This document shows positions 1,755 through 30,525 of a DNA stretch of 35,163 bases, piece by piece (within the stretch, counting starts at the first letter, position 1; the number at the start of each line of letters is the position of its first letter). This DNA is from an uncultured Lachnospiraceae bacterium. GTDB lineage: Bacteria > Bacillota > Clostridia > Lachnospirales > Lachnospiraceae. Made by a program: the position numbers and the translations under genes. The stretch covers positions 1 through 35,163 of the forward strand of contig CAKSBI010000025.1 of NCBI GenBank assembly GCA_934437985.1, in the 5' to 3' direction. The notes below the pieces were generated by a model. It made no database searches, had not been told where the DNA came from, and saw only the letters and a list, made by a program, of their open reading frames with translations.

Positions 1755-4226
1755 TTATTCATCAACCGGTTTTGCCGTAAGCTTATATACATTGCCGGCA
1801 ACCGTCGGAAATGATATTGCATCGTTACCAATCACTGTAGGTGTAATCCTTGTTCCTGCGGTAATATTAACGACATTATATCTGCTGATATCATTATACT
1901 TCAGGGCACATACGCTTCCACTGCCGGATTTCACTACTATATAATCAGCTACATGGTCACTCCATTCTACAGACACATCAAAATTACCTCTTGCCCTGAT
2001 TCCAGAATAGCTTCCATCGCCCCAGTCATCAGGAAGTGCGGCAAGCGGTTCAATATAACAACCCTGACTTTGAAGCAGCATCTCTGCCATACCCGATGTT
2101 GCACCAAAGTTTCCGTCTATCTGGAACGGTGGGTGGGTATCAAACAGATTCTTAAGCGTAGATGACTTAAGCTGTTCACCAAGAAGCTTCTTGGCTCTGT
2201 TACCATCACGGAGCCTTGCCCACATATTAATCTTCCACGCCTTGCTCCATCCTGTGCCGCCATCACCACGTTTTTCAAGTGTAACCTTTGCTGCTTCGGC
2301 AAGCCTATCATCCTTCTCACTTCTGCCGCATACCACATAAGTACCCGGGTGGAGCACATACAGCTGATTCTGGTGTCTGTGGCCATCACTGTTCTCTATC
2401 TCAAGCCTGGTCTCATCCTTCCACTCCCTGAACTGGCCTCCAAGCGTATCGGTCTCCGGCATATATAGCTTCGCTTTTGCAGCTGTAATCTCCCCAACCT
2501 CAGAGTCCGAAGCCCTGCCAAGGACTTCTGCAGCCTTTTCAACCTCATCAAACAGCTCCCATATAACTGCCTGGTCACATACACAGCCCATTGTAAATGT
2601 TCCATGCTCAGGCGAATATGATGGATTAGCAACAAGTAAACCATCTCTTTCATCCGTCCACAGGTTATCTGTCCAGAACAATGCTGCTTCAAGCATTGTG
2701 TTGTAATATTTTTCCAGTACGTTCTTATCCTTAGTAAACTGATATGCCTCCCACATGTCCTGGCACTGCCATGCAGCCGCTGCCGGAAAATAAAATGCGG
2801 TTGTCCAGTCACTTGGATTAGTGTTACCCCATATATTATTCTCATGATGTATGACCCATCCGCGTACTTCTGATCCATCCTGCTTACAGTAATACTTCTT
2901 CGCTGTCCTCTTACCCTTTTCAACCATATCATTGATATAATCAAGCAGGACCTTATGGCATTCAGAAAGACCGGTCTGCTCTGCCAGCCAGTAATTCATC
3001 TGGAGATTAATATTGGTATGAAAATCCGAATTCCACATTGGCGACAGCCCCTGCGCCCATATACCCTGCAGATTGGCAGGAAGCTTTGAATTCTCTCTTG
3101 AAGCAGATATAAGAAGATATCGTCCATACTGGAAAAAAAGTGTCTCAAGATACCTGTCTTCTTCCTCAGTATTGCCATTGTCATATTCTGCAAGAAGTTC
3201 ATCCGTCATCTTTTGCGGAACCTCCGCTGCACCGATATTAACAACACATTTATCAAATAATGCCTTATAATCCGCAACATGCTCAGCATATAAGCTGTCA
3301 AATCCCTTTTGGACAGCCTTTGTAACAGTATCGGTAACTTTAATTACCGGTTCCTCATCTTCAAAATAGTTATATTCAGCCGACGCATCACTCTTATAAT
3401 TAGTTCCGGCACCCATAATTATGACAACAGAATCTGCATTTTGTACCTTAATCCCATTACCACCATCAGCAGCAATACTTCCACCCTCATTAAGCACCCT
3501 GATAACCTGGGCAAACTTAAGCCCATCAGCCCTCTGGCCATCAGGCTGTCCTTCCATAACAATAGCCGCTTCAGCTTCATTTACAACTATATTCTTATTG
3601 TTATGCTCCGTTGTAAGCCTGACTGTATTATTAATCTTACAGCCTTCACTTGCTGTTAATCTGCATACTATGACATTAGAAGGATTATTTGCAAAATATT
3701 CCCTTTTATAGCTTACGCCATCAACATCATAGCTTACGGTCTGTACAGCATTACCAATATCCGACTTTCTTAAATAATTACTGTATCCACTGCCCACAGG
3801 TTCGCTATTAACAATATTGATGTCACTTAGTGACTGATATGTACCAAAATTATCCTTAACGCCCTTAAGGATATTCAGATTATCCATAAATCCGGCTTCA
3901 TCTGTAAGCTCCGGATAATCATATGCGGCTATATTACCATTATCATCCCTATGTGCGGCCTTGTTAGCAGCAAAATCATCAGACATATCCTGTATTCTCT
4001 GCCTGACCTTCTGCAAAGCCTCATGCACCTGCCCTGCGCTATATAGATTACTTCCGCCATCATAATCACTGTCAGAACCCGGTCCGCCTGACCATACTGT
4101 ACTCTCATTTATCTGAAGCCGCTCATTATCAACCCCTCCAAATACCATAGCACCTATACTTCCATTACCAATCGGAAGTGCCTCCGATTCCCAGTCATCA
4201 GCCGGTTCATCATATTGAATAATCAT
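1755..4226 (-). CDS. GH95 family alpha-L-fucosidase, cytoplasmic
   Basis: About 823 aa from the ATG at 4226; a GTG two codons earlier (4232) is also possible, and AGGAGA lies upstream. The N-terminal beta domain begins with ALPIGNGSIGAMVFGG and NERLQINESTVWSGGPG, diagnostic of GH95. The helical catalytic domain has SSRENSKLPANLQGIW-type sequence, FHTNINLQMNYW (the two conserved Asn), NPSYSPEHGTF (acid Glu about residue 540) and PPFQIDGNFGAT (Asp about residue 704), corresponding to the catalytic set known from Bifidobacterium AfcA. The family hydrolyses alpha-1,2-fucosyl linkages by inversion; some members act on alpha-L-galactosides. No signal peptide is seen, so it probably acts on imported oligosaccharides. 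It is divergent from the xylanase and shares a 170-bp regulatory gap with it. Confidence 0.9.
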   Translation of the reverse strand: MIIQYDEPADDWESEALPIGNGSIGAMVFGGVDNERLQINESTVWSGGPGSDSDYDGGSNLYSAGQVHEALQKVRQRIQDMSDDFAANKAAHRDDNGNIAAYDYPELTDEAGFMDNLNILKGVKDNFGTYQSLSDINIVNSEPVGSGYSNYLRKSDIGNAVQTVSYDVDGVSYKREYFANNPSNVIVCRLTASEGCKINNTVRLTTEHNNKNIVVNEAEAAIVMEGQPDGQRADGLKFAQVIRVLNEGGSIAADGGNGIKVQNADSVVIIMGAGTNYKSDASAEYNYFEDEEPVIKVTDTVTKAVQKGFDSLYAEHVADYKALFDKCVVNIGAAEVPQKMTDELLAEYDNGNTEEEDRYLETLFFQYGRYLLISASRENSKLPANLQGIWAQGLSPMWNSDFHTNINLQMNYWLAEQTGLSECHKVLLDYINDMVEKGKRTAKKYYCKQDGSEVRGWVIHHENNIWGNTNPSDWTTAFYFPAAAAWQCQDMWEAYQFTKDKNVLEKYYNTMLEAALFWTDNLWTDERDGLLVANPSYSPEHGTFTMGCVCDQAVIWELFDEVEKAAEVLGRASDSEVGEITAAKAKLYMPETDTLGGQFREWKDETRLEIENSDGHRHQNQLYVLHPGTYVVCGRSEKDDRLAEAAKVTLEKRGDGGTGWSKAWKINMWARLRDGNRAKKLLGEQLKSSTLKNLFDTHPPFQIDGNFGATSGMAEMLLQSQGCYIEPLAALPDDWGDGSYSGIRARGNFDVSVEWSDHVADYIVVKSGSGSVCALKYNDISRYNVVNITAGTRITPTVIGNDAISFPTVAGNVYKLTAKPVDE

Positions 4227-4271
4227 ATCCACATTCTCCTCATATAATATTTTTCATCTGCGGCACATGCA

Positions 4272-4306: not shown

Positions 4307-4403
4307 CCAAAAATATCAGAATATCTGGTAGAATAGCTCAATAAAATATGTTAAAATATCGTTGTCTTTATGATTAATATTTCAGGAGAAGGAGATGCAT
4401 ATA

Positions 4404-6143
4404 ATGAAAAAGTCATTCAAAAGAATCATGGCAGCCGCGCTCGCATGCACGCTTAGTATCCCTGCTGTATTTAACAGCTCTGATGTATCTGTGGCAAAGG
4501 CAGCAAAGGCACCAAAGCTAAGCACTTCAAAGATTTCATCACTTGAAGCAGGGGCCGCAAAAAAGGTTACGCTTAAGGCAAATGGCGTTAAAAAGATTGT
4601 CAGGGTCACTTGGAAATCCAACAAAAAAAACATATCCCTGAGCAAAAAAAGTAAAAAAGGGGTTACAATCAGGGGCGTACGTGCCGGCAAAGCAACATTA
4701 ACAGCTAATGTAAAATACAGGGTAAAGGCAAAAACAAAAGTTATCTCAAGGAAGCTCACATGTAAGGTAACTGTAACAGACGCCGCTAAGACGACGCCAG
4801 CTGTAACAGTTACACAGACACCTGCCGCAACGACCGCTACGGCTTCACCGGTACCGGATCCGACACTCTCCCCGACACCATCACCAACACCGGGTCCGGC
4901 CAATCTGTTATCAGCACTTGGAAAGTTCGTTAAAAATGTAGGTTCCTGCATATCATACGGCGGAGGCTGGGGAGGAACACCTGCAATAGTAGCAGATGCA
5001 GATACAACTGCATTTATCAAAGAGAATTACAACAGCCTTACAGCCGAAAATGAGATGAAACCGGAATCAATCCTTGGGTACCAGGCTAATACAATCAAAG
5101 TTGAGGAAGCTAGAAAGCAGGGCTTCTACATTCCTGCCGGTTATACAGAATCAAAGGTACCGGTTCTTAACTATGACAACATTGATACTCTCTGCAAATA
5201 TGCCATGGACAATGGTCTAAGAATCAGATATCACGGTCTTCTCTGGCACGAGCAGACCTCTAACTGGTTTTTCCGCAAAAACTATGATGGCAATGCAGCA
5301 TATGTTACACCTGAGATTATGGATGAACGTATCGATTATTACATAACTAACGTCATGAAACACGTCTATAGCAGCAAATACAGGGATATCGTATATTGCT
5401 GGGACGTTGTTAATGAATACCATCACATGACAGAATGTATATGCAGAATTCAGGGAACATCAAGTCCACTTGACCCGGAGGGAATAAGCAAGGACAAACC
5501 GGAAACCGTGAAATGCTTCTATGAAGTATATAAGGACGCCATCTTTGAAGATCCATCTGACCCGGCACACTCACCGGTAAAGACCAATCCGGCATATGTC
5601 AAAAAAGCATTTATGGCTGCATATAAGGTTCTTGAAGAATATGGTCTTACAGACAGTGTTGAGCTTGTATATAATGATTATGATACCAACTGGCCGGAAG
5701 TACGGGCAACTGCTCTCGCAGTAACATCATACATCAACACAAAGGATGAGCTTAACCCTAATGGCGACAAACTTGTAACAACAATCGGAATGCAGACACA
5801 TGACAGGCTTGGTGATACAAGATGGTCAATTACAAGCCATGAAGCTGCAATGGAAGCATTCAGGGAAGCCGGAATGAACTTCCAGGTTACAGAGATGGAT
5901 CTTAATAGAAATGGCCGGTCTGACGCTGAGCAGCTTCAATACTGGAGCGACTTTGTTGCCCTTATTATCAAAGAAGCAAAGAAAGGCGCTAACATAACAG
6001 GGTTCACATGGTGGGGTCTTTATGATTCCAAATCATGGCTTGGTACTAACGGAAGCCCGCTCCTTTGCGGAACATCCGTAAAAGACAAAAAGCCTGCTTA
6101 CTATAAGGTAATAAGCACGGCTTATGAGCATTACTGGGATTAA
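4404..6143 (+). CDS. Secreted GH10 endo-1,4-beta-xylanase with N-terminal Ig-like domain
   Basis: 579 aa from the ATG at 4404, preceded by AAGGAG at 4389-4394; an in-frame ATG at 4395 is an alternative. Residues about 1-33 form a signal peptide (MKKSFKRIMAAALACTLSIP). A Lys-rich Ig-like Big_2-type module covers about 37-125, and a Thr/Pro/Ala linker (SPTPSPTPGP) about 130-165. The GH10 barrel follows: TAENEMKPES, RYHGLLWHEQTSNWF, the acid/base Glu in WDVVNEYHH (about residue 338), and the nucleophile Glu in FQVTEMDLN (about 497), then GFTWWGLYDSKSWL. An insert after WDVVNEYHH (roughly 50 residues with ECICRIQGTSSPLDPEG) is longer than in minimal GH10 enzymes. Predicted role: extracellular xylan depolymerisation. 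A strong terminator follows at once. Confidence 0.93.
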   Translation: MKKSFKRIMAAALACTLSIPAVFNSSDVSVAKAAKAPKLSTSKISSLEAGAAKKVTLKANGVKKIVRVTWKSNKKNISLSKKSKKGVTIRGVRAGKATLTANVKYRVKAKTKVISRKLTCKVTVTDAAKTTPAVTVTQTPAATTATASPVPDPTLSPTPSPTPGPANLLSALGKFVKNVGSCISYGGGWGGTPAIVADADTTAFIKENYNSLTAENEMKPESILGYQANTIKVEEARKQGFYIPAGYTESKVPVLNYDNIDTLCKYAMDNGLRIRYHGLLWHEQTSNWFFRKNYDGNAAYVTPEIMDERIDYYITNVMKHVYSSKYRDIVYCWDVVNEYHHMTECICRIQGTSSPLDPEGISKDKPETVKCFYEVYKDAIFEDPSDPAHSPVKTNPAYVKKAFMAAYKVLEEYGLTDSVELVYNDYDTNWPEVRATALAVTSYINTKDELNPNGDKLVTTIGMQTHDRLGDTRWSITSHEAAMEAFREAGMNFQVTEMDLNRNGRSDAEQLQYWSDFVALIIKEAKKGANITGFTWWGLYDSKSWLGTNGSPLLCGTSVKDKKPAYYKVISTAYEHYWD

Positions 6144-6239: not shown

Positions 6240-6468
<229 letters not shown>

Positions 6469-6477
6469 CTGCTATTT

Positions 6478-6942
6478 TCATGACGCCTCAATATCCATGT
6501 TGCAGCCAAGCCGGTAGACCGGCACTACATTGCGCATACGTTCTATGAGGGAAAGTGTCTGCTTCATTCCGTCTGACGACAGACTGCGGTTAGTCTGCCG
6601 GACAATCATCGGATATGCGGCATGTGGCTCTGCCTGCTTGATATGATTTGTGATGTCTCTTGTCAATATACAGATGCCATTTAACGGTACTGCGGTATTT
6701 GTGCTGAGTCTGTGCTTGCCATCCCAGGGTGTACCATATGCAGTCACGCCGGAGTCTATGATATGAAGAAGCGGCTTGTCATCGTTTACCATGACGGCAC
6801 GCTCCCCGAAATATTCTCTCCACAGTCGTGTATGGGTGGACTTGCCGGTACCACTTTTGGCTGTAAAAAGATAGCCTTCGCCATCTACAGCGATGACCGA
6901 TCCATGAAAAAGCGGTAGTTCTGTTTCTTTTTCTTCTGCCAA
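6478..6942 (-). pseudogene. HprK-like (HPr kinase/PEP carboxykinase fold) kinase, truncated at both ends
   Basis: 154 codons ending at 6478. Visible are FHGSVIAVDGEGYLF, the P-loop TAKSGTGKSTHTRLW (about residues 27-41), MVNDDKPLL and YGTPWDGKHRLSTN, all typical of the HprK-like kinases common in Lachnospiraceae accessory loci. From memory such proteins have roughly 80-100 residues before FHGS and continue past the CNMxxEA motif. Here the frame reaches back only to a TTG at 6942 without a ribosome binding site, and it stops right after CNMDIEAS. Its first 58 bases overlap the end of the LRR gene in another frame, which looks like a deletion junction. Related kinases phosphorylate proteins or, in some lasso peptide clusters, the peptide product. 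If translated at all it would depend on coupling to the upstream gene. Confidence 0.65.
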
Positions 6943-7928
6943 AGGAATATACCGCCTATGACTGCAAGAAGCACTACAACTACGACAACTATGATAATGC
7001 CTATCATAGAAGACTTCTGCTCATCCTGCTTCTCATCTTCCCTTGTCACCGTATTTCCGTCTTTATCTGTATAGGTCAGTGTTTTTCCATCTTTATTGAG
7101 ATTTACCTGTGTTCCGTCATTATCCTTGATGACTGTCTCTCCACTGTCATCTGTTGATATGGAATACTTGTGGTCTCTGTCTATTACCTTTATATCACCA
7201 TTTTCGTCAATCTTGATTAAGTTGTTTGTATCGTCTACTGTGATCAGCTTATTGTCAGAGGTTTTTATTCCCGGTCTGTCCTGCATAGCATCGGCATTCT
7301 CTGCTACTGCTTCAAAGCCTACTCCTGCGCTGTCATTGTTGTTACTTCCGCTATTATCTGTATCATTATTACCATTGTTACTGCTATTGCCGATATCTTT
7401 GCCGGAACTATTATTGCCGGAGCTATGACTTCCTGAACCGGCTTCGCTATTGTTGTCTTTATTCCGGTTCTTATCCGTTGTGTTCTGATTATTGGTGTTG
7501 CTGTCACCATCCGGATTCACATAGACCGGATAATCCTGTGTCACTGTACAGCCGGACGGAACCTTAACCTTGACACCGGTTGACTGCACGACAACTTCCT
7601 TAAGCTGCTTCATATCGGCAAACACATTGTCCCCGATTTCTGTAATAGTATCCGGGATGGTTATCTTCGTAACGGTTCCTGCATCAGCAAATGCAGCATT
7701 TTCTATCTTCGTCATAGGCAACGCTGCAATATGGTCCGGTATCACCACCTCGCTCTCAGAACCAAAATACGATTCAATTGTGACACTATCCCCCGATATG
7801 GAATACTCAAAATATCCTTCGGTATGATGATTTCCTGCTGCGTATACGGTTATCTGTGTGCCTGTCCATAACATCAGGCAGATTGCTAATATGGTAACAA
7901 TCCATGTTTTCTTCCTAACCTGTCTCAA
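6885..7928 (-). CDS. Exported leucine-rich-repeat (BspA-like) protein with C-terminal membrane anchor
   Basis: I choose the TTG at 7928 (347 aa) because GGAGG (7938-7942) lies 9 bases upstream and the sequence then starts with a clean signal peptide (RQVRKKTWIVTILAICLMLW, cleavage near VYAAG). The open frame continues to 8108, but that part overlaps the short peptide gene and a hairpin. Residues about 35-120 carry an LRR_5/BspA-like module (VVIPDHIAALPMTKIENAAF, ITIPDTITEIGDNVFADM). An Asn/Ser/Asp-rich spacer (about 135-215) and acidic KDGNTVT-type repeats follow. The protein ends with a strong transmembrane helix (IGIIIVVVVVVLLAVIGGIF) and a short Lys-rich tail, so it should display the LRR on the cell surface. 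It is third in the minus-strand operon after the surface protein and the small peptide. Confidence 0.75.
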   Translation of the reverse strand: MRQVRKKTWIVTILAICLMLWTGTQITVYAAGNHHTEGYFEYSISGDSVTIESYFGSESEVVIPDHIAALPMTKIENAAFADAGTVTKITIPDTITEIGDNVFADMKQLKEVVVQSTGVKVKVPSGCTVTQDYPVYVNPDGDSNTNNQNTTDKNRNKDNNSEAGSGSHSSGNNSSGKDIGNSSNNGNNDTDNSGSNNNDSAGVGFEAVAENADAMQDRPGIKTSDNKLITVDDTNNLIKIDENGDIKVIDRDHKYSISTDDSGETVIKDNDGTQVNLNKDGKTLTYTDKDGNTVTREDEKQDEQKSSMIGIIIVVVVVVLLAVIGGIFLWQKKKKQNYRFFMDRSSL

Positions 7929-7994
7929 TTTGTTTTTCCTCCAAAATGCTTTACAGACTTCTGATATTCCTGCTGCTTTTGTAAATGTAAGAAT

Positions 7995-8013
7995 GGCAGG
8001 CGAAACGCCTGCC
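7995..8013 (-). promoter_or_regulatory. GC-rich hairpin between small peptide and LRR gene (attenuator or processing element)
   Basis: GGCAGGCG (7995-8002) and CGCCTGCC (8006-8013) form a perfect 8-bp stem with a three-base loop. The minus-strand sequence after it (ATTCTTACATTTAC) lacks a real U-tract. A partial terminator or mRNA 3'-end stabiliser that makes more peptide than downstream products is a reasonable reading, but inferred. Confidence 0.5.
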
Positions 8014-8037
8014 ACCCTGCCTTGGGATGTAATACTT

Positions 8038-8157
8038 TTATTCTTCAAAACCACTATCAACATCATATCCCGGTATATTACTTGTAGTAATAATATCCTC
8101 TGTTTCAAATTCTACAATTTCCATTTCTACTGCTTCATACTTTTCTTTCATGGTCAT
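8038..8157 (-). CDS. Small acidic peptide (37-39 aa), candidate RiPP-like precursor or signalling peptide
   Basis: ATG at 8157 (39 aa) or, better spaced from the GAAAGG site at 8161-8166, ATG at 8151 (37 aa). The peptide is MKEKYEAVEMEIVEFETED (from the second Met), then IITTSNIPGYDVDSGFEE. It starts 18 bases after the stop of the 1631-aa surface protein, so it is in the same operon. It resembles short Firmicute peptides with a conserved E(x)3IVEFxTEDxITTS core and an acidic, poorly conserved tail, which I recall near HprK-like kinases. The leader-core appearance, the Thr-Thr-Ser in the middle and the kinase remnant downstream suggest a modified peptide, but no modification enzyme other than the kinase is visible. 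It is not a shadow: a ribosome binding site, tight spacing and a following hairpin support it. Confidence 0.6.
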   Translation of the reverse strand: MTMKEKYEAVEMEIVEFETEDIITTSNIPGYDVDSGFEE

Positions 8158-8175
8158 AATCCTTTCTTTGAATAA

Positions 8176-11100
8176 TTAATTATTATATACATTTGATGTA
8201 AATGTGTCTGTATATACTGTTATCACTTCTCCTGATACAACGTTCCGATATGTTAAATATCCTCTTGCATAGAGATTTTTCTGTGCTGATACAGCACCTA
8301 ATGTCAAGGTGTATGTCATCGTGCCCCCTGCTGTAATAAGCTTAGACGGATTCTTCTTAACATTCGTTTTATCAACTTTATCAAGTTCAAGCTGATTTGA
8401 ATATGCATCCTCTAACGTTCTTACAAGTCCGGCTTCTATCATTTCATAGCCTTCCGGAATTGACCAGGTTACATTCATAACAACAGTCTGTTTGCCATCT
8501 GTAAGTGTTGTTCTATCACCCATAGTCATATTGACAAGCGGTTTCTGTGTAATAACTTCATCACCTTCATATTTCGCTGTGATTTCTGTGTTTCCGGTAA
8601 TATAGAACGAATATGCTTTCTTATCACTTACCAGTTTATCGCCAATATACCAGCCAGAGAAATATTTATTATCCTTACTCTCATCTGCTGTTACTGTGAC
8701 AAGTGAGCCATAGGAATATGTCTTTTCGCGCTGTGCTCCATCCACAGTAAGTGTAAGTCCGGATTCTGCTTCATACTCCGCATAGATGGTAACTGCCTCA
8801 GTAATTTTGATACAACCATTATCATCGACAGTCATCACCTTTCCGGATGCATCCTTCCATTGTTTGAAGGTATAGCCGGTAAAGGTGCCATGTGCCGGAG
8901 CTGTGACAGTTCCGTATTTTGTGCCATCTGCTTCCTTATCCATAGTTACATCACCAGACCAGAGAATCTTTCCGCTCATATCCTTAAAGATTACATATTG
9001 CGATTCTGCCTCACTGCTTTCCGTTTTCTTATAGCAAGCCTGAAGTTCCATGTTATCTCCCAGATAGAAGCTGTAGGTCAGTGAATCTGAAATCACCCTG
9101 CCATCCTGATTGATCCAATATAGGAAAGTATATCCATCACTAGGCTTGGCTGTTAGTGTAAAATAAGAGCCTCTGGCAAATCCATTATTTGTAAAGTCGT
9201 TGTTCCATGTACCGGTTTGCGTTCCGTTCTGATAGCTGTACTCTACGCTACCATTGCCTACTGTTACGCTGAGTTTTCTATTTTCATTTGATTTATAAAC
9301 CGCATACAATGAAATCTCAGAAGGTGTCTGTTCATTCACTGATCCATAAGTGTAAGTCGTCTCTTTAGACAGTGGTTTAGCAGACTCTGTAATCTGTTCT
9401 GTATCATACCAACCAACAAATACAAATCCATCGACTGCCTGTGCTTTCAGTATGATTTCATCACCAATCTCATACTTGCCACCGCCATCTAAGATACCGG
9501 AATTGGCAGGATTGCAAGATACCGTTACTATGGTATGTGCATTTTTAAGACCGTTTAAGGCATTTAACAGGTTGTCACTGGCAGTCTTAATCTCGTCCTG
9601 TGAAGAAGCATCATTAATATTCCTTGCATTATCAAGTACCTTCTGCAAACTCTCTATTGCAACTTTAGAATAGGTATTGTTCACATCGATAATGATAGTC
9701 TCTGCCTTTGTGATCAGGACATTCAGATATCCAAGACTGGCATAAGATGTACCGCACTTATCACAGAATCCATCCGGCTCATTTGTTTCATTACCTTCAC
9801 TGTCTGTGCCTTTTTCATCCACATGATTGCAGTTGTTTGGGTCTGCGATTCTTACTGTGACCGTCTTTTTGCCGATTTCTCCATCCTTATTTTTGAGATA
9901 ATAGGTAATTTCTCTGCCATTGTCATCGGTCGCCTCCGAATAGGTAAATGAGGAACCATATGTGCCATCTGCAGCATCATTGATCGTATATCCTTCCGGT
10001 GCTGTCAATGTTACCGAAGTTGCCCACCATTCCATATCAGGATTTAGTGTTTTGCCATTCTGGTCTGTTAATGTAGCAGCTACATCATCCAAATACAGCC
10101 ATTTAATCTCAAGTGTCATAGTACCTTCTGCTGCAGTGTAATTACCGCTTGCCGGTATTGATGCCTTGATCTCATAGGTACCACGTTCTGTCGGCAGACC
10201 GGAACTGAACTCTCCGGATGCTATACCATATTCTAATTCACGATAAGAATAACTGATGTTGTCTGTATCACTGAAGGTTTCGCCATTCAAGAGTGTGACC
10301 GTTGGTGCTGTGAGCTTGGATACATCAATCTCATCTCCTGTATAAGCAACAGACTGTTTTGTCTGGTCTTCTGCCCATGCAATCGTCGGTGTTGCCTGCT
10401 CAATGGTAAAGGTTACACTGACTGTTGCAGTATTATTATCTGCACCGGTCAGAGAAACCGATGCTGTATAACTTCCTGCATCCATCGGTTTTACTCCTTC
10501 GCTTAATGTCTCTGTCGTATCCGAACCATCCGCCTGATAGGTATATATAACTTTTGGCTTTACTCCTTCGATCGTATTCTCTACCTTTACATCCTTCGCA
10601 CTTCCATCATAGGTAACTGCCTTCTCCCCTTCCGGATATTCCGGTGCGGTAATCATAAGCGAACCTCTGTCCTCGCTGCTGTCATACAGACAGCTTGCTG
10701 TTATCTTGTGGTTATCTTCCTCCACAGAATATACATTTTCGTGCTCCTGCTCGGAACCACATACAGAGCAGACATGCTTTCCTTCTTCATTTTCGTTCCA
10801 TTGGAATTGAGTGACAAATTCCGGCTTCGTCTGCGTATTACCAAACGAATATTCTATAACTCTATTGGCATTTTTCTCATCTGCATAATCAGTTGGCTCT
10901 TTGACATGCTCACACACCTGATACTTACTCACATTGCGGTATACTGCATTTCCTAAGCTTTCCTGATAAGCCGATGGATAAGAGGTCTGATTCTCTCCAG
11001 TCAGGACTTGTCCCCAAACCATTTTAGCATCCTTCATATAATCGTAGTCCTTAATGCTATCATTATACTTATAGGTCACATTATTCTGATTCAGCCGCCA

Positions 11101-13071
11101 TGCCGCCTCACCGCTTGCAAGTGCTTCCGCACTTACCGCCTCAATTCCCTGATAACTTTGTATATTCTGAGAATCGATACAATAGCAATTACGAATAAGG
11201 CTACCTTTCTTCGCTTCTCCTATCAGTCCATATGTTGAATGAGCTTGTTGCATAATTAGAATTCCCTGAAAATAGCAATTATATATCTCGCCACTATAAT
11301 CTATTATTCCTGCAATTCCTCCTACCCCAGAAGAATCACTTGCCATAACAAAACAAGAATTGACAACTCCCAGATTTTTTACCTTGCCCCCACAATCTCC
11401 GAGAAATCCTGCATATCGTCCACATTGACCATTATACAACCCACTGATCGTATGATATTGTCCATCTATTATGCCTGAATAGCTGTTATGATTTCCTCCA
11501 ATCGGAGTCCATTCCCTTGGCTTATTTGAATCCGAAATCGCCTCACCATTATACAGCAGTTTTCCATCTTCCGTCTGTGTAAATGTCCCTTCATTGACTA
11601 CGATATCCTTCATAATACGTGCTTTTAAGGTGTCCCTTCCACCATTGACCTGTTCGGCAAACCAGTATAACTCCCCTGCATTCGTGATCTCATAATATTT
11701 ATCCGTAGATAGATGCGGTTCTGCATACTTGCCGCAAACCGTACAGATTCCAAACGCATCAATCTTATGTGCGGTATATTTGACAGACTCATCGATCTGT
11801 TCATTAGTATATCTACTTTCCTCACTAGGGGTTCCATCACAGTTAATCACCGCCTGAGCATATACCTCCTTGCTGCCCTGTGCAAGAACCGGATACGAAT
11901 CTTCCCCTATCGTCTGACGGAATCTTATCGTCTGCTTCTTTTTGTTATATATATTCAGCAGATACGCCGCCTCTCCACTTGCAAAGGCCTCTGCATTCAG
12001 ACCGGTTGCACAGGTATCGTCCGCACCACTGCTGTTATCATAATAGCAGTCAGAGATACATGCTTCCGATGCTGCATCCACCCATCCCGCTATCATATGT
12101 ACATTGTCTTTCTTGCCGCTTACCCTGCCTGTATTATAGCAGTTCCGCATGCGCACCATACTTCCAGCAAAACTTCCTGTGATACCCCCCACATAATCTG
12201 CTCCTGTTACACTGCCCCTGTTATAGCAATAGGTAAAATCATTGTATGTACTGTTTGATGTAAATTTTCCCTGAATACCGCCGGCATACTTCCCTGCTGC
12301 CACCACTGTTCCGGTATTGTAACAGGCATAGACACTTGCATAACTAAGACCTGCCAGTGCTCCCACATAATTGTTCCCTTTGATATAGGAATCCTCGATT
12401 CCAAGCTGCTCCACCGATACACAATAATAGTTGCCGCCACTATATGAAACATATGTATTTGACTTTCCAATCAAGCCCACATAGTCTCTATCCTCATCGG
12501 CATATAAGCCGCGGATCACATGATGGTTTCCATTGATCGCACCATAGAATGTATTGCCATCCCCGCCAATCGGCGTCCATTTGAGAAAAGACGACTTATC
12601 CGCTTCATTCAGTTGTCCATCTGTTGTCAGCACGTTCTGGTTGATGGTAATATCTGCCGTCAGTATAGCATTGACTCTTGTATTCTTCGGCACACCCCCC
12701 TTGCAGACGTTCTCATCACCATTCACCACTCCCGCAAACCAGTAGAGCTGACCAGCATTTGCAATCTCATAGGCGGATGGCAATGTAACCTCTTCTTCAA
12801 AAGTATCATAAAATTTAACTTTCTCCTTTAGCACCGCCGGCTCATAGCCGCAGCAGCCACCATAACTGCAATCTGCGTTATGGACATATACCCCATTCTC
12901 TACCTTACCATTGACACAGAAGCCGTTCTGGTAATGGTCGTTCTCCGCACGCAGTTCATTGCCCGATGTGGTCTCCTCCGCCCCTGCCTGCACCGGTGTC
13001 ATACCAAACACCAGGCAGGCACTTAAGAGTACTGCCAGTCCTCTTTTTATGCTTCTTATTCCATTCATCAT
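8176..13071 (-). CDS. Giant secreted surface protein with GLUG, MBG-like, FIVAR and Listeria-Bacteroides-type repeats
   Basis: 1631 aa. ATG at 13071 after AGGAGG-taattt. A signal peptide covers residues 1-30 (IKRGLAVLLSACLVFGM, cleavage near QAGAEE). Two blocks of GLUG-type repeats (about 100-370 and 455-690) contain ELYWFA, GTIDG/YHTISGLY-like and GGIAG-CYN units. Ig/MBG-like domains follow (AVTYDGSAKDVKV, DAGSYTASVSLTG, then TPTIAWAEDQT). A FIVAR-type helical segment lies around 1130-1190 (LQKVLDNARNINDASS). Repeats of the type GYTFLYWINQDGR, GYTFKQWKDASGK and KYFSGWYIGDK follow to about 1530, then a unique C-terminal domain. CxxC knuckles recur (CTVCGKY, CSVCGSE, CDKCGTS). No LPXTG sorting signal or C-terminal helix is seen, so the mode of surface attachment is unknown. 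Likely an adhesin or matrix-like protein. It heads the operon with the small peptide and LRR protein. Confidence 0.8.
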   Translation of the reverse strand: MMNGIRSIKRGLAVLLSACLVFGMTPVQAGAEETTSGNELRAENDHYQNGFCVNGKVENGVYVHNADCSYGGCCGYEPAVLKEKVKFYDTFEEEVTLPSAYEIANAGQLYWFAGVVNGDENVCKGGVPKNTRVNAILTADITINQNVLTTDGQLNEADKSSFLKWTPIGGDGNTFYGAINGNHHVIRGLYADEDRDYVGLIGKSNTYVSYSGGNYYCVSVEQLGIEDSYIKGNNYVGALAGLSYASVYACYNTGTVVAAGKYAGGIQGKFTSNSTYNDFTYCYNRGSVTGADYVGGITGSFAGSMVRMRNCYNTGRVSGKKDNVHMIAGWVDAASEACISDCYYDNSSGADDTCATGLNAEAFASGEAAYLLNIYNKKKQTIRFRQTIGEDSYPVLAQGSKEVYAQAVINCDGTPSEESRYTNEQIDESVKYTAHKIDAFGICTVCGKYAEPHLSTDKYYEITNAGELYWFAEQVNGGRDTLKARIMKDIVVNEGTFTQTEDGKLLYNGEAISDSNKPREWTPIGGNHNSYSGIIDGQYHTISGLYNGQCGRYAGFLGDCGGKVKNLGVVNSCFVMASDSSGVGGIAGIIDYSGEIYNCYFQGILIMQQAHSTYGLIGEAKKGSLIRNCYCIDSQNIQSYQGIEAVSAEALASGEAAWRLNQNNVTYKYNDSIKDYDYMKDAKMVWGQVLTGENQTSYPSAYQESLGNAVYRNVSKYQVCEHVKEPTDYADEKNANRVIEYSFGNTQTKPEFVTQFQWNENEEGKHVCSVCGSEQEHENVYSVEEDNHKITASCLYDSSEDRGSLMITAPEYPEGEKAVTYDGSAKDVKVENTIEGVKPKVIYTYQADGSDTTETLSEGVKPMDAGSYTASVSLTGADNNTATVSVTFTIEQATPTIAWAEDQTKQSVAYTGDEIDVSKLTAPTVTLLNGETFSDTDNISYSYRELEYGIASGEFSSGLPTERGTYEIKASIPASGNYTAAEGTMTLEIKWLYLDDVAATLTDQNGKTLNPDMEWWATSVTLTAPEGYTINDAADGTYGSSFTYSEATDDNGREITYYLKNKDGEIGKKTVTVRIADPNNCNHVDEKGTDSEGNETNEPDGFCDKCGTSYASLGYLNVLITKAETIIIDVNNTYSKVAIESLQKVLDNARNINDASSQDEIKTASDNLLNALNGLKNAHTIVTVSCNPANSGILDGGGKYEIGDEIILKAQAVDGFVFVGWYDTEQITESAKPLSKETTYTYGSVNEQTPSEISLYAVYKSNENRKLSVTVGNGSVEYSYQNGTQTGTWNNDFTNNGFARGSYFTLTAKPSDGYTFLYWINQDGRVISDSLTYSFYLGDNMELQACYKKTESSEAESQYVIFKDMSGKILWSGDVTMDKEADGTKYGTVTAPAHGTFTGYTFKQWKDASGKVMTVDDNGCIKITEAVTIYAEYEAESGLTLTVDGAQREKTYSYGSLVTVTADESKDNKYFSGWYIGDKLVSDKKAYSFYITGNTEITAKYEGDEVITQKPLVNMTMGDRTTLTDGKQTVVMNVTWSIPEGYEMIEAGLVRTLEDAYSNQLELDKVDKTNVKKNPSKLITAGGTMTYTLTLGAVSAQKNLYARGYLTYRNVVSGEVITVYTDTFTSNVYNN

Positions 13072-13110
13072 AAATTACCTCCTAGCCACAATTTTCATTG
13101 TAATCCGTGT

Positions 13111-13133
13111 TTTATAATTATCTGGTAACTGTT
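13111..13133 (-). promoter_or_regulatory. Possible LytTR-controlled promoter of the surface-protein operon
   Basis: On the minus strand an AACAGTTACC motif (13124-13133) resembles LytTR-family half sites and sits just upstream of a TATAAA -10-like box (13111-13116). The hexamer expected for the -35 box (GCTCTG) is poor, as in activator-dependent promoters. The neighbouring gene encodes a LytTR regulator. Only one half site is evident. Confidence 0.3.
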
Positions 13134-13148
13134 CAGAGCCAAGCAGAT

Positions 13149-13256
13149 TTATCTATTTGGCAGATACGCCACACCGACGAAATGCAAAGCATTTTGGAGG
13201 TGGGCTTTGAACATCTGCATAAATCTTACCACTTCATCTCGATTTTTTTCAAGATA
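13149..13256 (-). other. Short open stretch and nested inverted repeats upstream of the surface-protein gene
   Basis: The 289-bp spacer holds a minus-strand frame without an initial ATG that ends at TAA 13149 and reads EKNRDEVVRFMQMFKAHLQN then ALHFVGVAYLPNR. The first Met is internal. The same DNA can form GCAGAT/ATCTGC pairings, two right-hand copies competing for one left copy, and CAAAGC/GCTTTG (6 bp, 13-nt loop). It looks compositionally different from ordinary spacer and may be a gene remnant, a leader peptide or a structured RNA. I cannot decide which. Confidence 0.3.
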
Positions 13257-13286
13257 TTATGTGACTATTTGTTCTTTTTTTTCTAA

Positions 13287-13332
13287 AAAAAATGTCATTC
13301 CACCACTTTTTTGTGATGAAATGACATTTTTT
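13287..13332 (-). terminator. Terminator of the LytTR regulator gene
   Basis: A 20-bp stem: AAAAAATGTCATTCCACCAC (13287-13306) against the segment 13313-13332. The two non-Watson-Crick positions become G-U pairs only in the minus-strand RNA, and a U-run follows on that strand. This fixes the direction and separates the regulator transcript from the surface-protein operon. Confidence 0.8.
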
Positions 13333-13360
13333 AGTCCATTTACGTAATTCGTCACAGCAT

Positions 13361-14149
13361 TTATTCCTGCTTTAACAGGTAATTCTTCCATATCTGTGAC
13401 AGCTCATCTTGTTTTTGTGCACAGTGTATCTCGTCCAACGGGAATAACATACATCCGCAGTGTCCCGAAAATGTCGGGAAACAGATAATCTTAAGTTCGG
13501 TATCTATCTCCGGACTATATGCCATAATCTCAAGACGTTCTCCATACAGTGTTGCCCGTTCATAGGTACACAGCCATTTATCGTCCATATTGGAGAAGAT
13601 ACTGCCGAAGGTATTCCCGATGAGTCCACTTAGAGGTACATGCTCCACCTCTGCCAGCTTCTCATTGCCATAGCGGAATATCCAGTCCACTGCATGCCTG
13701 TCCTCATTGAATATCATTTCAATATCCGCAAAGGCAAACGGCATCTGATCAAAGCTCCGATAGAACGCATGATACTCTTCCGGTGTCTTTGGTGTATTTG
13801 GCAGGGCAAAGCTCTCAATCAATTTTTTCTGCTTCTCCTGCAGCTGGGCAAGGATTTCCTTTCTCCTGCGGGTTGCGTAGTTGAGCTCTTCCCCATTGAT
13901 AAGTGTCAGCGTATCTTCTAATGCATGGATTGCCATGATACTCACCAGATAGGTACGGTGCACTTTCAGAAAATATTCCCCGACCTGTGCCTCCATTGCC
14001 TCCAAGGTGCTTCTGGTCTTATATACGCTTCCGCTTGTCACATGAATGTAACAGTCATTCACCGATGCCTTGATATATAGGATATCTGCGACATCGATCT
14101 CCATATGCTTATGATTTGCCTTGATTTCCAGTGTTCTCTTAAACTGCAT
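13361..14149 (-). CDS. LytTR-family DNA-binding regulator with C-terminal PAS-like domain
   Basis: 262 aa. Residues about 1-100 are a LytTR DNA-binding domain: DVADILYIKASVNDCYIHV, VYKTRSTLEAMEAQV, FLKVHRTYLVSI and the NGEELNYATRRRKEIL end. A short coiled segment (LQEKQKKLIESF) links to a C-terminal domain of about 140 residues (FYRSFDQMPFAFADIEMIF, VDWIFRYGNEKLAEVE, GNTFGSIFSNMDDKWL). This looks like a PAS-type sensor for a small ligand or redox signal. The order is the reverse of classical response regulators, which carry LytTR at the C-terminus, and no phosphoacceptor domain is present. It ends in its own terminator. The promoter of the surface-protein operon 230-280 bp downstream is the obvious candidate target, by proximity only. 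Confidence 0.8.
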   Translation of the reverse strand: MQFKRTLEIKANHKHMEIDVADILYIKASVNDCYIHVTSGSVYKTRSTLEAMEAQVGEYFLKVHRTYLVSIMAIHALEDTLTLINGEELNYATRRRKEILAQLQEKQKKLIESFALPNTPKTPEEYHAFYRSFDQMPFAFADIEMIFNEDRHAVDWIFRYGNEKLAEVEHVPLSGLIGNTFGSIFSNMDDKWLCTYERATLYGERLEIMAYSPEIDTELKIICFPTFSGHCGCMLFPLDEIHCAQKQDELSQIWKNYLLKQE

Positions 14150-14431: not shown

Positions 14432-14708
14432 TTCTACGAAGAACTGACCAGCCGCCTTGAACTTTACAGCCAAATTAAAGAAGGAATGGACGATATTGCC
14501 ACAGGCAATACAAGACCATTTTCCGAAGCTATGGCTGATATCACGATATTATGCGTGCTGCGGATTACATCGAATTTACCCTCAAAAATCCAACTGCCGC
14601 AGATAATCTGTTAGATGTTGCGACTGAACAGATAGGCTCATTAGCCGACCTGCCACAGAAGTTCCGTCTAGTAGATGATCCGGTACTGGCAAGCTGGGGC
14701 ATTCGTTT
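14432..14708 (+). pseudogene. Fused remnants of a ParD/RelB-type antitoxin and a ParE/RelE-type toxin
   Basis: Downstream of a good promoter and ribosome binding site, one frame reads EELTSRLELYSQIKEGMDDI then ATGNTRPFSEAMADI (to about 14543), an antitoxin-like helix-rich sequence. The frame then shifts, and from 14539 another frame reads YHDIMRAADYIEFTLKNPTA, ADNLLDVATEQIGSLADLPQ and FRLVDDPVLASWGIRFA. This is the body of a ParE/RelE-superfamily toxin without its N-terminus and last strands. No start codon sits at the right distance from the ribosome binding site, an internal deletion fuses the two genes out of frame, and the toxin is cut at about 14708 by an insertion sequence end. It has no plausible function now. 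Confidence 0.65.
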
Positions 14709-14738
14709 TGCTATTAGCCCTATAAGGGCTATGTTACC

Positions 14739-15056
14739 GCTCGCCCAAAAGGCTTTACTCCACTTACTTTGAAGTTCAGGATGCTTATCATATATCATCA
14801 ATGCACTTTTACCCTTTAAATATCCCATAATACTTGAAACACTCATTTTAGGCGTAATACATACACATAAATGAACATGATTACTGCACACTGCTCCTTG
14901 AACCATCTCAACATTTTTATAAGCACATAACGATTTTATTATACTCCTAACATCTTCTCGCAATCTTCCATATAATTGTTTTTTGCGATATTTTGGAATG
15001 AATACAATATGGTATTGGCATTTCCATCTTGTATGTGATAAACTTTTACTGTCCAT
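14739..15056 (-). pseudogene. tnpA: IS200-type Y1 transposase (tnpA), truncated at the C-terminus
   Basis: The start is ATG at 15056 after AAAGGAGG (15064-15071). The protein MDSKSLSHTRWKCQYHIVFI, then PKYRKKQLYG, contains the HUH motif in CSNHVHLCVCI and GYLKGKSALMIYDKHPELQ. Sequence identity to the family ends at WSKAFWASG. After that the frame runs through the element's end hairpin and on into the toxin remnant (nominal stop at 14565). The missing C-terminal helix carries the catalytic Tyr and the QKYIREQ-like region, so this transposase should be inactive. Confidence 0.75.
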
Positions 15057-15062
15057 ATGGAC

Positions 15063-15119
15063 GCCTCCTTTACAATGAAATATGGCTTGCGACACCATTC
15101 TCATTGTATCACAGGAGGC
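15063..15119 (-). promoter_or_regulatory. Inverted repeat sequestering the tnpA ribosome binding site
   Basis: GCCTCC (15063-15068) pairs with GGAGGC (15114-15119), and ACAATGA (15072-15078) with TCATTGT (15101-15107). On the transcript the tnpA Shine-Dalgarno GGAGG is buried in this stem, matching the translational repression known for IS200 leaders. Confidence 0.65.
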
Positions 15120-28803: not shown

Positions 28804-30525
28804 TTATCCTTCATATAATGAATAGTACACTCCGCCTTTTCTGATCAGTTCTTCATGGGTACCGGTTTCTTCAATTCCGTTTTCAGTAAGCACAAGTATC
28901 TCCTCAGCATTCTGTATCGTTGAAAGTCTGTGCGCAATAACAAATGTTGTTCTGTTTTTGGCAAGTCTTTCAAGCGAATTCTGTACAACTCTCTCACTCT
29001 CATTATCTAGTGCGGAGGTTGCCTCATCAAATATGAGTATCGGAGGATTCTTAAGAAATACCCTTGCAATTGATATTCTCTGCTTCTGTCCTCCCGAAAG
29101 CTTGATCCCACGCTGTCCGATATCTGTATCATAGCCATCGTGGAATGACATAATGAATTCATGGGCATTAGCATTCTTCGCCGCCTCTATCACTTCTTCC
29201 CTTGATGCATCCGGTTTACCATACAGAATATTGTCGTATATCGTTCCCGCAAACAGATATACGTCCTGCTGTACAACACCGATATGTCTTCTGAGGCTGC
29301 CAAGTGTTATATCCCTGACATCTGTTCCATCAATCTTTACTGCGCCTGCCGTAACATCATAAAATCTTGGGATAAGCGAACACAGGGTAGTCTTACCACC
29401 ACCCGATGTTCCAACAAGTGCCACATATTTACCGGCTTCAACATTAAGATTAACGTTATTTAATACATTAACAATTCCATCATTATATCTGAATGAAACA
29501 TTATCAAACTCCACACTTCCCTTAACATTATGAATATCCCGGGCACCCTCCCTGTCCCTTATCTCAGGCACAATATCCATTATCTCGCTGAATCTCTCAA
29601 ATCCTGTATATCCATTTTGGAACTGTTCAGTAAAATCAACCAGTGTTCTGATAGGTTCAGTAAATACACCGATGTATAAAAGGAATGTTATCAGGTCTGA
29701 TACATCCAGACTGTTATTCGCTATCAAAACCGCGCCAACAACGATTACACTTACCTGGATCAGCGTTGTAAAGCTCCCTACACCTGACTGGAATGTTCCC
29801 ATGTATCTGTAACTGTCTTTCTTTGCTTTAAGGAAATTATCATTGCCAACACCAAATTTTTTCATCTCTATATCTTCATTGGCAAAGGATTTGACCACCC
29901 TTATTCCTGACAGATTATCCTCAATCTGTGCATTAATTTCAGCAATTGTTTCCCTGTTTCTCCTGAATGCACGCCTCATTTTTTTGTTAAGAAAATACGC
30001 AAATATAAACATCACCGGAAGTACGGCAAATGCTGCGAGTGTAAGCCATCCGCTTATTCCGGACAGTATAACAAGTGCCCCGGTAATCTTAAGAAGTGAA
30101 AGTATAATATTTTCAGGTCCATGATGCAAAAGCTCTGTAATATCAAACAGGTCTGTTGTAATCCTGCTCATTAATTTTCCAACTTTGGCATCATCATAAA
30201 ATGAAAACGAAAGCTTCTGCATATGCCCAAATAATTCCCTGCGCATATCATATTCCATCTTCGCACCCATTACATGTCCGTAATTACCTATAAAGAACCT
30301 GCTGTAGCAGTCAACTGCTATAAGTACAAGCAGCCCCGCAAGTATAAACAGAATCTCCCTGATTATAGTGTCAGAATCCTTATAAATCAGCGTACCGGTA
30401 ATATATCTTACAATTAACGGTATTACAAGTGCTGTTCCGGCAGATATCGCTGCAAAAAACATATCAGCAAGAAATATTGCCATATAAGGCTTATAATAGC
30501 CAAGCATCTTTTTTAAGTTATTCAT
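28804..30525 (-). CDS. ABC exporter half-transporter (permease-ATPase fusion)
   Basis: 573 aa, ATG after GGAGGTACAAA. Residues 1-320 form a six-helix type IV exporter domain (MFFAAISAGTALVIPLIV, ILFILAGLLVLIAVD, VILSGISGWLTLAAFAVLPV). The ATPase from about 335 has Walker A GTSGGGKTTLC, Q-loop GVVQQDVYLFAGT, signature LSGGQKQRISIAR, Walker B ILIFDEATSALD and the H-loop in IAHRLST. It works as a homodimer or as one half of a heterodimer. No partner half-transporter is adjacent, so homodimer is more likely. It lies upstream of, and in the same direction as, the operator array and blaI. The substrate is unknown. Confidence 0.92.
   Translation of the reverse strand: MNNLKKMLGYYKPYMAIFLADMFFAAISAGTALVIPLIVRYITGTLIYKDSDTIIREILFILAGLLVLIAVDCYSRFFIGNYGHVMGAKMEYDMRRELFGHMQKLSFSFYDDAKVGKLMSRITTDLFDITELLHHGPENIILSLLKITGALVILSGISGWLTLAAFAVLPVMFIFAYFLNKKMRRAFRRNRETIAEINAQIEDNLSGIRVVKSFANEDIEMKKFGVGNDNFLKAKKDSYRYMGTFQSGVGSFTTLIQVSVIVVGAVLIANNSLDVSDLITFLLYIGVFTEPIRTLVDFTEQFQNGYTGFERFSEIMDIVPEIRDREGARDIHNVKGSVEFDNVSFRYNDGIVNVLNNVNLNVEAGKYVALVGTSGGGKTTLCSLIPRFYDVTAGAVKIDGTDVRDITLGSLRRHIGVVQQDVYLFAGTIYDNILYGKPDASREEVIEAAKNANAHEFIMSFHDGYDTDIGQRGIKLSGGQKQRISIARVFLKNPPILIFDEATSALDNESERVVQNSLERLAKNRTTFVIAHRLSTIQNAEEILVLTENGIEETGTHEELIRKGGVYYSLYEG

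What the first reader, a model, noticed from the sequence alone, without database searches (positions are those of the whole stretch)
6478..14149. Peptide / LRR / kinase / giant surface protein locus under a LytTR-PAS regulator
A 37-39-aa acidic peptide with an EFETEDIITTS core lies 18 bp after a 1631-aa surface protein and before an LRR membrane-anchored protein and an HprK-like kinase (seen). HprK-like kinases are known tailoring enzymes in some lasso peptide clusters (established). I infer a locus where a ribosomal peptide is phosphorylated or otherwise modified, or acts as a signal, linked to surface display. I know of no described system with this composition.
Basis: partly seen in the sequence, partly recalled or inferred. 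Interest (0 to 1): 0.75.

Follow-up and report, generated by a model that had tools for sequence, protein, structure and literature searches.

The report
Phosphopeptide precursor behind giant surface protein
A gut-type bacterium carries a tiny gene for a peptide of a recently described phosphorylated kind, placed directly behind the gene of a giant, probably secreted protein; relatives repeat this pairing so often that it offers a clue to what such peptides do, although in this genome the modifying kinase is broken.

Summary
The 39-aa peptide is real and belongs to a widespread family in Clostridia (KYxxPExEIxEFExEDVITTS plus a variable acidic tail). Related loci carry an HprK-like kinase, a PqqD-type protein, an S26-like peptidase, an ABC exporter and an NTP_transf_5 protein, without a lasso cyclase beside them. 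This is the gene set of the linear polyphosphorylated peptides (LPPs) published in 2026 (PMC13381572), whose role is unknown. In the window the kinase has lost about 95 N-terminal residues by an inherited deletion fused to the LRR gene and the other genes are missing, so the window holds an orphan precursor. New here: precursors sit directly behind large, mostly signal-bearing proteins (90 of 116 against 12% of random intergenic positions), most with one of two C-terminal domains (69 of 84; the giant has one). One or a few blocks seem to serve many scattered precursors, and a neighbouring lipoprotein can end in the peptide's own tail. Best reading: a phosphopeptide dedicated to surface proteins; its exact job is inferred.

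The parts
8038..8157 (-). LPP-like precursor peptide, 39 aa: MTMKEKYEAVEMEIVEFETEDIITTSNIPGYDVDSGFEE
8089..8157 (-). leader-like part (Y at residue 7 to DII); the cut after DII is inferred from the Ser+3 position in LPP
   Evidence: inference
8041..8088 (-). predicted core TTSNIPGYDVDSGFEE; the Ser at 8080-8082 is the predicted phospho-acceptor
   Evidence: inference
8176..13071 (-). giant InlB-repeat / GLUG-type protein, 1631 aa, signal-like N-terminus by eye, partner gene upstream of the peptide
8179..8658 (-). C-terminal domain CTD-B of the giant protein, predicted all-beta
6885..7928 (-). small LRR (BspA-type) protein with C-terminal membrane helix, 347 aa from TTG 7928; its last about 10 codons come from kinase DNA
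6478..6942 (-). HprK-like kinase fragment, 154-aa ORF; DNA similarity to the relative's kinase gene starts at 6909
6240..6404 (-). internal fragment of a macro-domain gene, gene remnant behind the kinase fragment
   Evidence: Macro 2.3e-10, profile 30-69 of 118
13361..14149 (-). LytTR protein, 262 aa, probably a separate transcription unit
13285..13335 (-). terminator-like hairpin between the LytTR gene and the giant gene

Best explanation
The peptide is the precursor of a Clostridia branch of LPP-like (linear polyphosphorylated peptide) RiPPs, and it is dedicated to the large protein encoded directly in front of it. In intact relatives the PqqD-type protein is expected to bind the Y-containing leader, the HprK-like kinase to phosphorylate the invariant Ser of D[VI]Ix[TA]S, the S26-like peptidase to remove the leader, the ABC protein to export the core, and NTP_transf_5 to decorate the phosphate. 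Leader binding, phosphorylation and leader removal are shown experimentally only for the Paenibacillus LPP; export and the NTP_transf_5 step are inferred. At the cell surface the charged core is inferred to act with the partner protein, as ligand, anchor or assembly factor of its C-terminal domain; a lipoprotein carrying a copy of the core tail would compete for or share the same site. One or a few enzyme blocks serve many such pairs. In the window the pair survives, but the kinase is truncated and the rest of the block is gone, so the peptide is either served by a block elsewhere in the genome or is unmodified and decaying.
For: Family. Ser in 124 of 124 peptides although the scan pattern allowed S, T, R, C or W there, and 20 of 124 tails have no other S/T/Y; Ser in 34 of 35 distinct peptides outside the pattern. 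In LPP only Ser works (S3T and S3Y not phosphorylated). Gene block; S26-like Ser and His invariant with the 39-residue spacing of LppS S29/H68; GKST and NDDKP invariant in the kinase. No Asn_synthase or B2-type match near the peptide-linked kinases of 12 genomes. Kinase co-occurrence. Pairing: 90 of 116 against 2368 of 20000; two C-terminal domains in 69 of 84 partners; in 12 genomes chosen for carrying the peptide, 34 of 40 domain-bearing proteins are followed by a peptide. Machinery apart from precursors: strain Y1 has 1 kinase, in a block with no peptide in the 13 kb fetched, and 8 peptides on other contigs. Tail sharing. Truncation.
Against: No product, expression or binding data. No sequence of LppA, LppB, LppS or LppK was at hand, so homology to the published proteins was not tested; the leader after YxxP differs from the LPP consensus, and the window's own peptide has V in place of the motif's P. 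The S26-like proteins match signal peptidase models only below their cut-offs, and the Asp of the published triad is not invariant here. The kinase cut-off does not separate LPP from lasso kinases: in G007 a second kinase (1.2e-76) lies beside an Asn_synthase gene. CTD-B is not exclusive: 3 of 9 CTD-B genomes lack the close kinase. 26 of 116 peptides have no close upstream partner. The tail covariation rests mainly on about 6 of 22 loci, and the cognate is the best match in only 4 of 22. 14 of 28 close-kinase genomes show no peptide at the cut-off; 3 of 11 inspected have diverged ones. Related genomes are not independent.
Confidence: 0.5

Rival explanations
1. The window locus is a decaying remnant. 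The LPP block was lost by deletion; the peptide and LRR gene persist only because loss is recent, and nothing is modified in this organism.
For: Kinase N-terminus lost by a fusion deletion whose junction is also in P0046, P0081 and P0082, so it is inherited. The window kinase also lacks the C-terminus that P0082 keeps. A macro-domain fragment lies right behind it. No PqqD, S26 or NTP_transf_5 ORF was found in the window by profile, and its best ABC scores 521 bits against 760-925 for 11 block ABCs.
Against: The conserved part of the peptide is still intact; P0001 is 95% identical. Precursors apart from a block are common in Ruminococcus flavefaciens. No whole genome is held to check.
Confidence: 0.35
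2. The LPP is a secreted signal or antagonist. The lipoprotein with the same tail is its immunity protein or decoy and the surface protein its receptor or delivery scaffold.
For: Conserved leader with a variable core, exporter, patchy distribution, and lipoproteins ending in the core tail next to the peptide. The LPP authors note gain and loss typical of conflict genes.
Against: Tails as short as 4 residues after the Ser; up to 14 precursors per genome, at many loci directly behind a different large protein. Nothing shows activity on other cells.
Confidence: 0.2
3. The peptide is a lasso peptide precursor, as the HprK-like kinase link first suggested.
For: YxxP leader, PqqD, HprK-like kinase, NTP_transf_5 and ABC are shared with lasso clusters; our PqqD profile matches lasso RREs TbiB1 and TfuB1. 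One of 12 genomes (G007) has a B2-type match and Asn_synthase genes, on another contig than its peptide.
Against: In the other 11 genomes there is no B2-type match, and no Asn_synthase match lies within 10 kb of a peptide-linked kinase, as far as the contigs reach. Tails of 4 to 39 residues after the Ser.
Confidence: 0.03

Closest known systems
LPP, linear polyphosphorylated peptides (Popov et al. 2026, PMC13381572; abstract, sections 6, 7, 9, 11, 12, 16 and passages read; supplement not seen)
   Same: Gene set: archaeal-type signal peptidase, discrete RRE, HprK-like kinase, NTP transferase, MsbA-like exporter, no cyclase; YxxP leader, conserved Ser, variable C-terminus.
   Different: Leader continues ExEIxEFExEDVITTS instead of xVLxHQxIxFETxxS; precursors tied to large proteins with CTD-A or CTD-B, many precursors per block, tail-sharing lipoprotein. 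The paper's experiments use Paenibacillus and its genome mapping is of Bacilli; its main text has no hit for surface, secreted, Ruminococcus, Clostridi- or Lachnospir-, but its supplementary member list was not seen.
Paeninodin-type lasso peptides with HprK-like kinase (passages of PMC8498205 and PMC7533575 read)
   Same: Kinase, PqqD-type B1, NTP transferase and exporter families.
   Different: Lasso clusters have a cyclase and peptidase B2, paeninodins a WxxP leader, and phosphate on the C-terminal Ser.
HPr kinase/phosphorylase (TIGR00679, PF07475)
   Same: P-loop kinase region.
   Different: Matches far below the curated cut-offs.

Membership tests
LPP RiPP (family-level loci such as L171, L172, L173) | core set SpI + discrete RRE + HprK-like kinase + NTP transferase + MsbA-like transporter | tested here: met
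   the S26-like protein matches signal peptidase models below their cut-offs, and homology to LppS itself was not tested
LPP RiPP (family-level loci) | no macrolactam cyclase with the block | tested here: met
   Asn_synthase and Transglut_core3 searched in 12 genomes: none within 10 kb of a peptide-linked kinase as far as contigs reach; G007 has them elsewhere
LPP RiPP (family-level loci) | precursor with YxxP leader motif and variable C-terminus | tested here: met
   (Y at least 90%, P majority); the window peptide has YxxV
LPP RiPP (family-level loci) | full leader consensus YxxPxVLxHQxIxFETxxS | tested here: not met
   consensus here YxxPExEIxEFExEDVITTS; hence reported as an LPP-like variant, not a typical member
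LPP RiPP (family-level loci) | polyphosphorylated Ser and leader cleavage by the S26-type peptidase | not testable with these tools
   needs mass spectrometry; the Ser is kept
LPP RiPP (window locus itself) | core gene set in the locus | tested here: not met
   only precursor and a kinase fragment
Lasso peptide | cyclase and peptidase B2 with the precursor | tested here: not met

The most novel reading that the evidence does not exclude
In Clostridia, polyphosphorylated LPP-like peptides are dedicated partners of surface proteins: proteins ending in CTD-A or CTD-B carry their own phosphopeptide gene, one or a few enzyme blocks serve up to 14 precursors per genome in trans, and a lipoprotein displays a copy of the core tail on a stalk, so that surface proteins are docked or assembled by private phosphopeptide codes.
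Probability: 0.3. Interest if true: 0.85.

Novelty: new variant of a known kind. Interest (0 to 1): 0.62.

Why it matters
The role of LPPs is stated as unknown in the one paper on them found here. A recurrent genetic pairing with large surface-type proteins, through two C-terminal domains, turns that open question into direct tests: does the modified peptide bind the domain, and is the surface protein misplaced without the kinase? It would also be a new way for gut and rumen Firmicutes to handle giant surface proteins.

Tried and rejected
Lasso peptide: no cyclase or B2-type gene beside the peptide-linked blocks of 12 genomes. Control by the LytTR protein: a terminator lies between them and a relative occurs at 1 of 123 other peptides. 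Signal-peptidase -3/-1 rule for TxS: dropped, because the residue before [TA]S varies (T, C, E, F, R, M, V, S, L); a cut after D[VI]I, placing Ser at +3 as in LPP, is kept as inference only. Closest genome: 244 relatives of G008 gave none closer than G008 (LRR 52% identical over residues 5-201). Solved structures: none for the peptide or CTD-A, one weak hit (E 0.77) for CTD-B. Fold search: CTD-B resembles ApaG-like beta sandwiches (best E 9e-5, TM 0.40-0.48 in the top ten), CTD-A has no match (best E 0.28): not used as evidence of function. A window ABC (28807-30525) is not the block exporter.
Full report
1. What is in the window. The peptide ORF (8157-8038, minus strand) starts 18 bp after the stop of the 1631-aa ORF. 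The motif used later as a scan pattern occurs once in the window and in 0 of 100 shuffles. The giant protein has InlB-type repeats and a weak GLUG match; the next gene is a small LRR protein with a membrane helix (helix by eye). The 154-aa HprK-like ORF starts at the P-loop half of the kinase.

2. The kinase is broken. Aligned with 23 relatives it lacks about 90-100 N-terminal residues and 10 or more C-terminal ones. In the closest whole genome found (L064/L169, genome G008) the order is giant protein, peptide, LRR-like protein, three other ORFs, a 277-aa kinase, a further ORF, PqqD, S26 and the start of the ABC gene, where the contig ends. Window DNA similar to the LRR gene is followed directly by DNA similar to the middle of the kinase gene. 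The fused LRR tail KKKKQNYRFFMDRSSL recurs in P0046 (90% identical) and the kinase fragment in P0081 (98%) and P0082 (90%), while other relatives keep the LRR end KKKKQKYA, or full-length kinases 90-92% identical. So the deletion is inherited and not an assembly fault. P0082 still has the kinase C-terminus that the window copy lacks. A macro-domain fragment follows. Profiles found no PqqD, S26 or NTP_transf_5 ORF in the window.

3. The peptide family. Of the 80 titles shown, most name Ruminococcus, Oscillospiraceae, Clostridia/Clostridiales or Lachnospiraceae; exceptions include an Alistipes-titled and a Coriobacteriaceae-titled MAG contig (L019, L044), perhaps misbinned. Of the 124 peptides (123 plus the window) all carry Ser at the last motif position, although the pattern allowed S, T, R, C or W; 20 tails have no other S, T or Y; tails are 4 to 39 residues, median 13. 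Conservation of EF[ED]xED[VI]IT[TA] in this set is built into the pattern. Among 35 distinct peptides found by HMM outside the pattern, 34 keep the Ser (exception in L178) and the residue before [TA]S is free (counted by eye).

4. The enzyme block. Within 6 kb of the 124 peptides, on contigs often cut short, the same clusters recur: kinase at 29 (window included), PqqD at 19, S26 and/or NTP_transf_5 at 36, ABC at 18. Profiles support PqqD (7.7e-14 in L019, 3.4e-14 in L171), NTP_transf_5 (2.2e-46, 9.9e-36) and ABC; the S26-like proteins match archaeal or bacterial signal peptidase I only weakly (4.7e-7 in L019, 2.4e-5 in L172, 9.4e-4 in L171), below the cut-offs. Complete blocks of kinase, PqqD, S26, ABC and NTP_transf_5 are mapped in L149, L152, L159, L171, L172, L173, L174, L178 and L179; L157 has kinase, PqqD and S26 only. 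L171 and L172 have the window's order surface protein, peptide, LRR-like protein (LRR_5 5.4e-6 and 1.6e-5, just under the cut-off), then the block. In 12 genomes, Asn_synthase matches lie within 10 kb of a kinase only in G007, at its second kinase (contig C97, not the peptide-linked C90), and the single B2-type match is also on that contig: that genome seems to hold a lasso-type cluster as well, as the LPP authors describe for Bacilli. In 299 genomes of one family (it includes G010, titled Lachnospiraceae bacterium UBA3804), 15 have the peptide at E 1e-5 (G007, the centre, and G010 were known to) and 28 a close kinase (E at most 1e-48, a cut placed at a gap after seeing the list; lasso-type kinases are not excluded): 14 of 15 with the peptide, 14 of 284 without (Fisher 1.5e-15; genomes are related, so nominal). 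Of the 14 without, 11 were inspected; 3 have diverged peptides at the kinase locus (L191, L197, L200).

5. Machinery apart from precursors. Peptide and kinase matches in 12 genomes chosen for carrying the peptide: 14/3, 7/2, 8/1, 5/1, 2/1, 10/3, 1/2, 1/1, 1/1, 2/2, 2/3, 1/1. R. flavefaciens Y1 has one block (L159) with no peptide in the 13 kb fetched and eight peptides on other contigs of the draft. ND2009, with 14 peptides, has three kinases.

6. Pairing with large proteins. 90 of 116 peptides (12 more dropped at contig edges) lie at most 60 nt behind a same-strand ORF of 150 aa or more; random intergenic positions in the same loci do so in 2368 of 20000. Those proteins have signal-like N-termini in 47 of 60 cases that could be judged, against 133 of 355 other ORFs (a simple hydrophobicity rule). 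The last 160 residues of 84 such proteins fall into one family of 55 (CTD-A) and one of 14 (CTD-B, with the window's giant); 10 fall in four small families and 5 are single. In the 12 genomes 33 CTD-A proteins were found (36 matches, 3 duplicates merged) and 27 are followed by a peptide; CTD-B 7 of 7 (coordinates compared by hand; in at least 4 the domain match is not at the very end of the protein; these genomes were chosen for having the peptide and several supplied alignment rows). In the 299 genomes CTD-A occurs in 11, of which 10 have the close kinase; CTD-B in 9, of which 6 do.

7. Tail-sharing lipoproteins. 24 of 28 lipoprotein-like ORFs near peptides end in LPxx or [SF]PxTP tails, a rule framed after seeing some of them, against 60 of 1202 ORFs overall. 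In several loci the tail equals or resembles that of the peptide (PIELPLVPLR in L160 and L177; DDGLEWSPLTPIN and DDGLNWSPLTPI in L162; NLDENEWA and NIDENEWA in L157; PPEGEE in L106), in L161 it differs, and in L118 a whole peptide is fused to the lipoprotein. Over 22 pairs the cognate score is 23.9 against 17.1 (sd 1.3) when permuted, 0 of 20000; the signal comes mainly from about six loci, and the cognate is best or tied in 4 of 22.

8. Comparison with the literature. Popov et al. 2026 (PMC13381572; abstract, sections 6, 7, 9, 11, 12, 16 and passages read; supplement not seen) describe LPPs: SpI-like peptidase, discrete RRE, HprK-like kinase, NTP transferase and MsbA-like exporter; a kinase that puts several phosphates on Ser3 of the core; RRE-assisted leader removal; a leader motif YxxPxVLxHQxIxFETxxS; and an unknown biological role. 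Our blocks have the same gene set and mostly YxxP, but a different leader continuation, so they are reported as a variant. The strings EDVITTS, DVITTS and EDIITTS were found in no held paper; VITTSG once, in a mosquito paper. The other searches showed no account of this pairing in their listings; RRE-Finder (PMC7470986) was only searched for six terms, with no hit. Subscription papers are mostly, and bioRxiv preprints wholly, outside that library.

9. Verdict. Shown by computation: the family, the block, the pairing, the truncation. Taken from the LPP paper by analogy: recognition, phosphorylation, leader removal. Inferred: export, NTP_transf_5 action, the cut after D[VI]I, and any action on the surface protein. 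For the window, an orphan precursor with its partner gene, either served in trans or decaying.

Noticed in passing
window 14565-15104 (-): IS200-type transposase (Y1_Tnp 7.4e-28) upstream of the LytTR gene; the surroundings look rearranged.
   Followed up: no
window 1755-4232 (-): Glycoside hydrolase family 95 protein, near a 582-aa protein at 4395-6143 that looks like a xylanase by eye (not searched).
   Followed up: no
L118, lipoprotein ORF of 153 aa: A whole EDIITTS peptide is fused in frame to the C-terminus of a Thr-rich lipoprotein.
   Followed up: partly
G007, contig C97 about 21.8-24.1 kb and 47.0-48.8 kb: A second HprK-like kinase beside an Asn_synthase gene, and a B2-type match beside another: probably lasso-type clusters in a genome that also has the LPP-like locus.
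   Followed up: partly
L187 6614-8244: Three different peptides lie around one kinase gene in a complete block.
   Followed up: no
L156: R. flavefaciens ND2009 locus with peptide, PqqD and NTP_transf_5 but no kinase, S26 or ABC in the 7.5 kb fetched.
   Followed up: no
L169 5039-5823 and 6840-8411: Block interrupted by a methyltransferase-like piece, a RelB-like ORF and a 524-aa ORF (names by eye), as if the locus takes up insertions.
   Followed up: no
kinase homologues P0081-P0200: Nearly all listed carry the precomputed label PF27840.1, yet 3 of them scanned against the Pfam copy here gave no family.
   Followed up: partly
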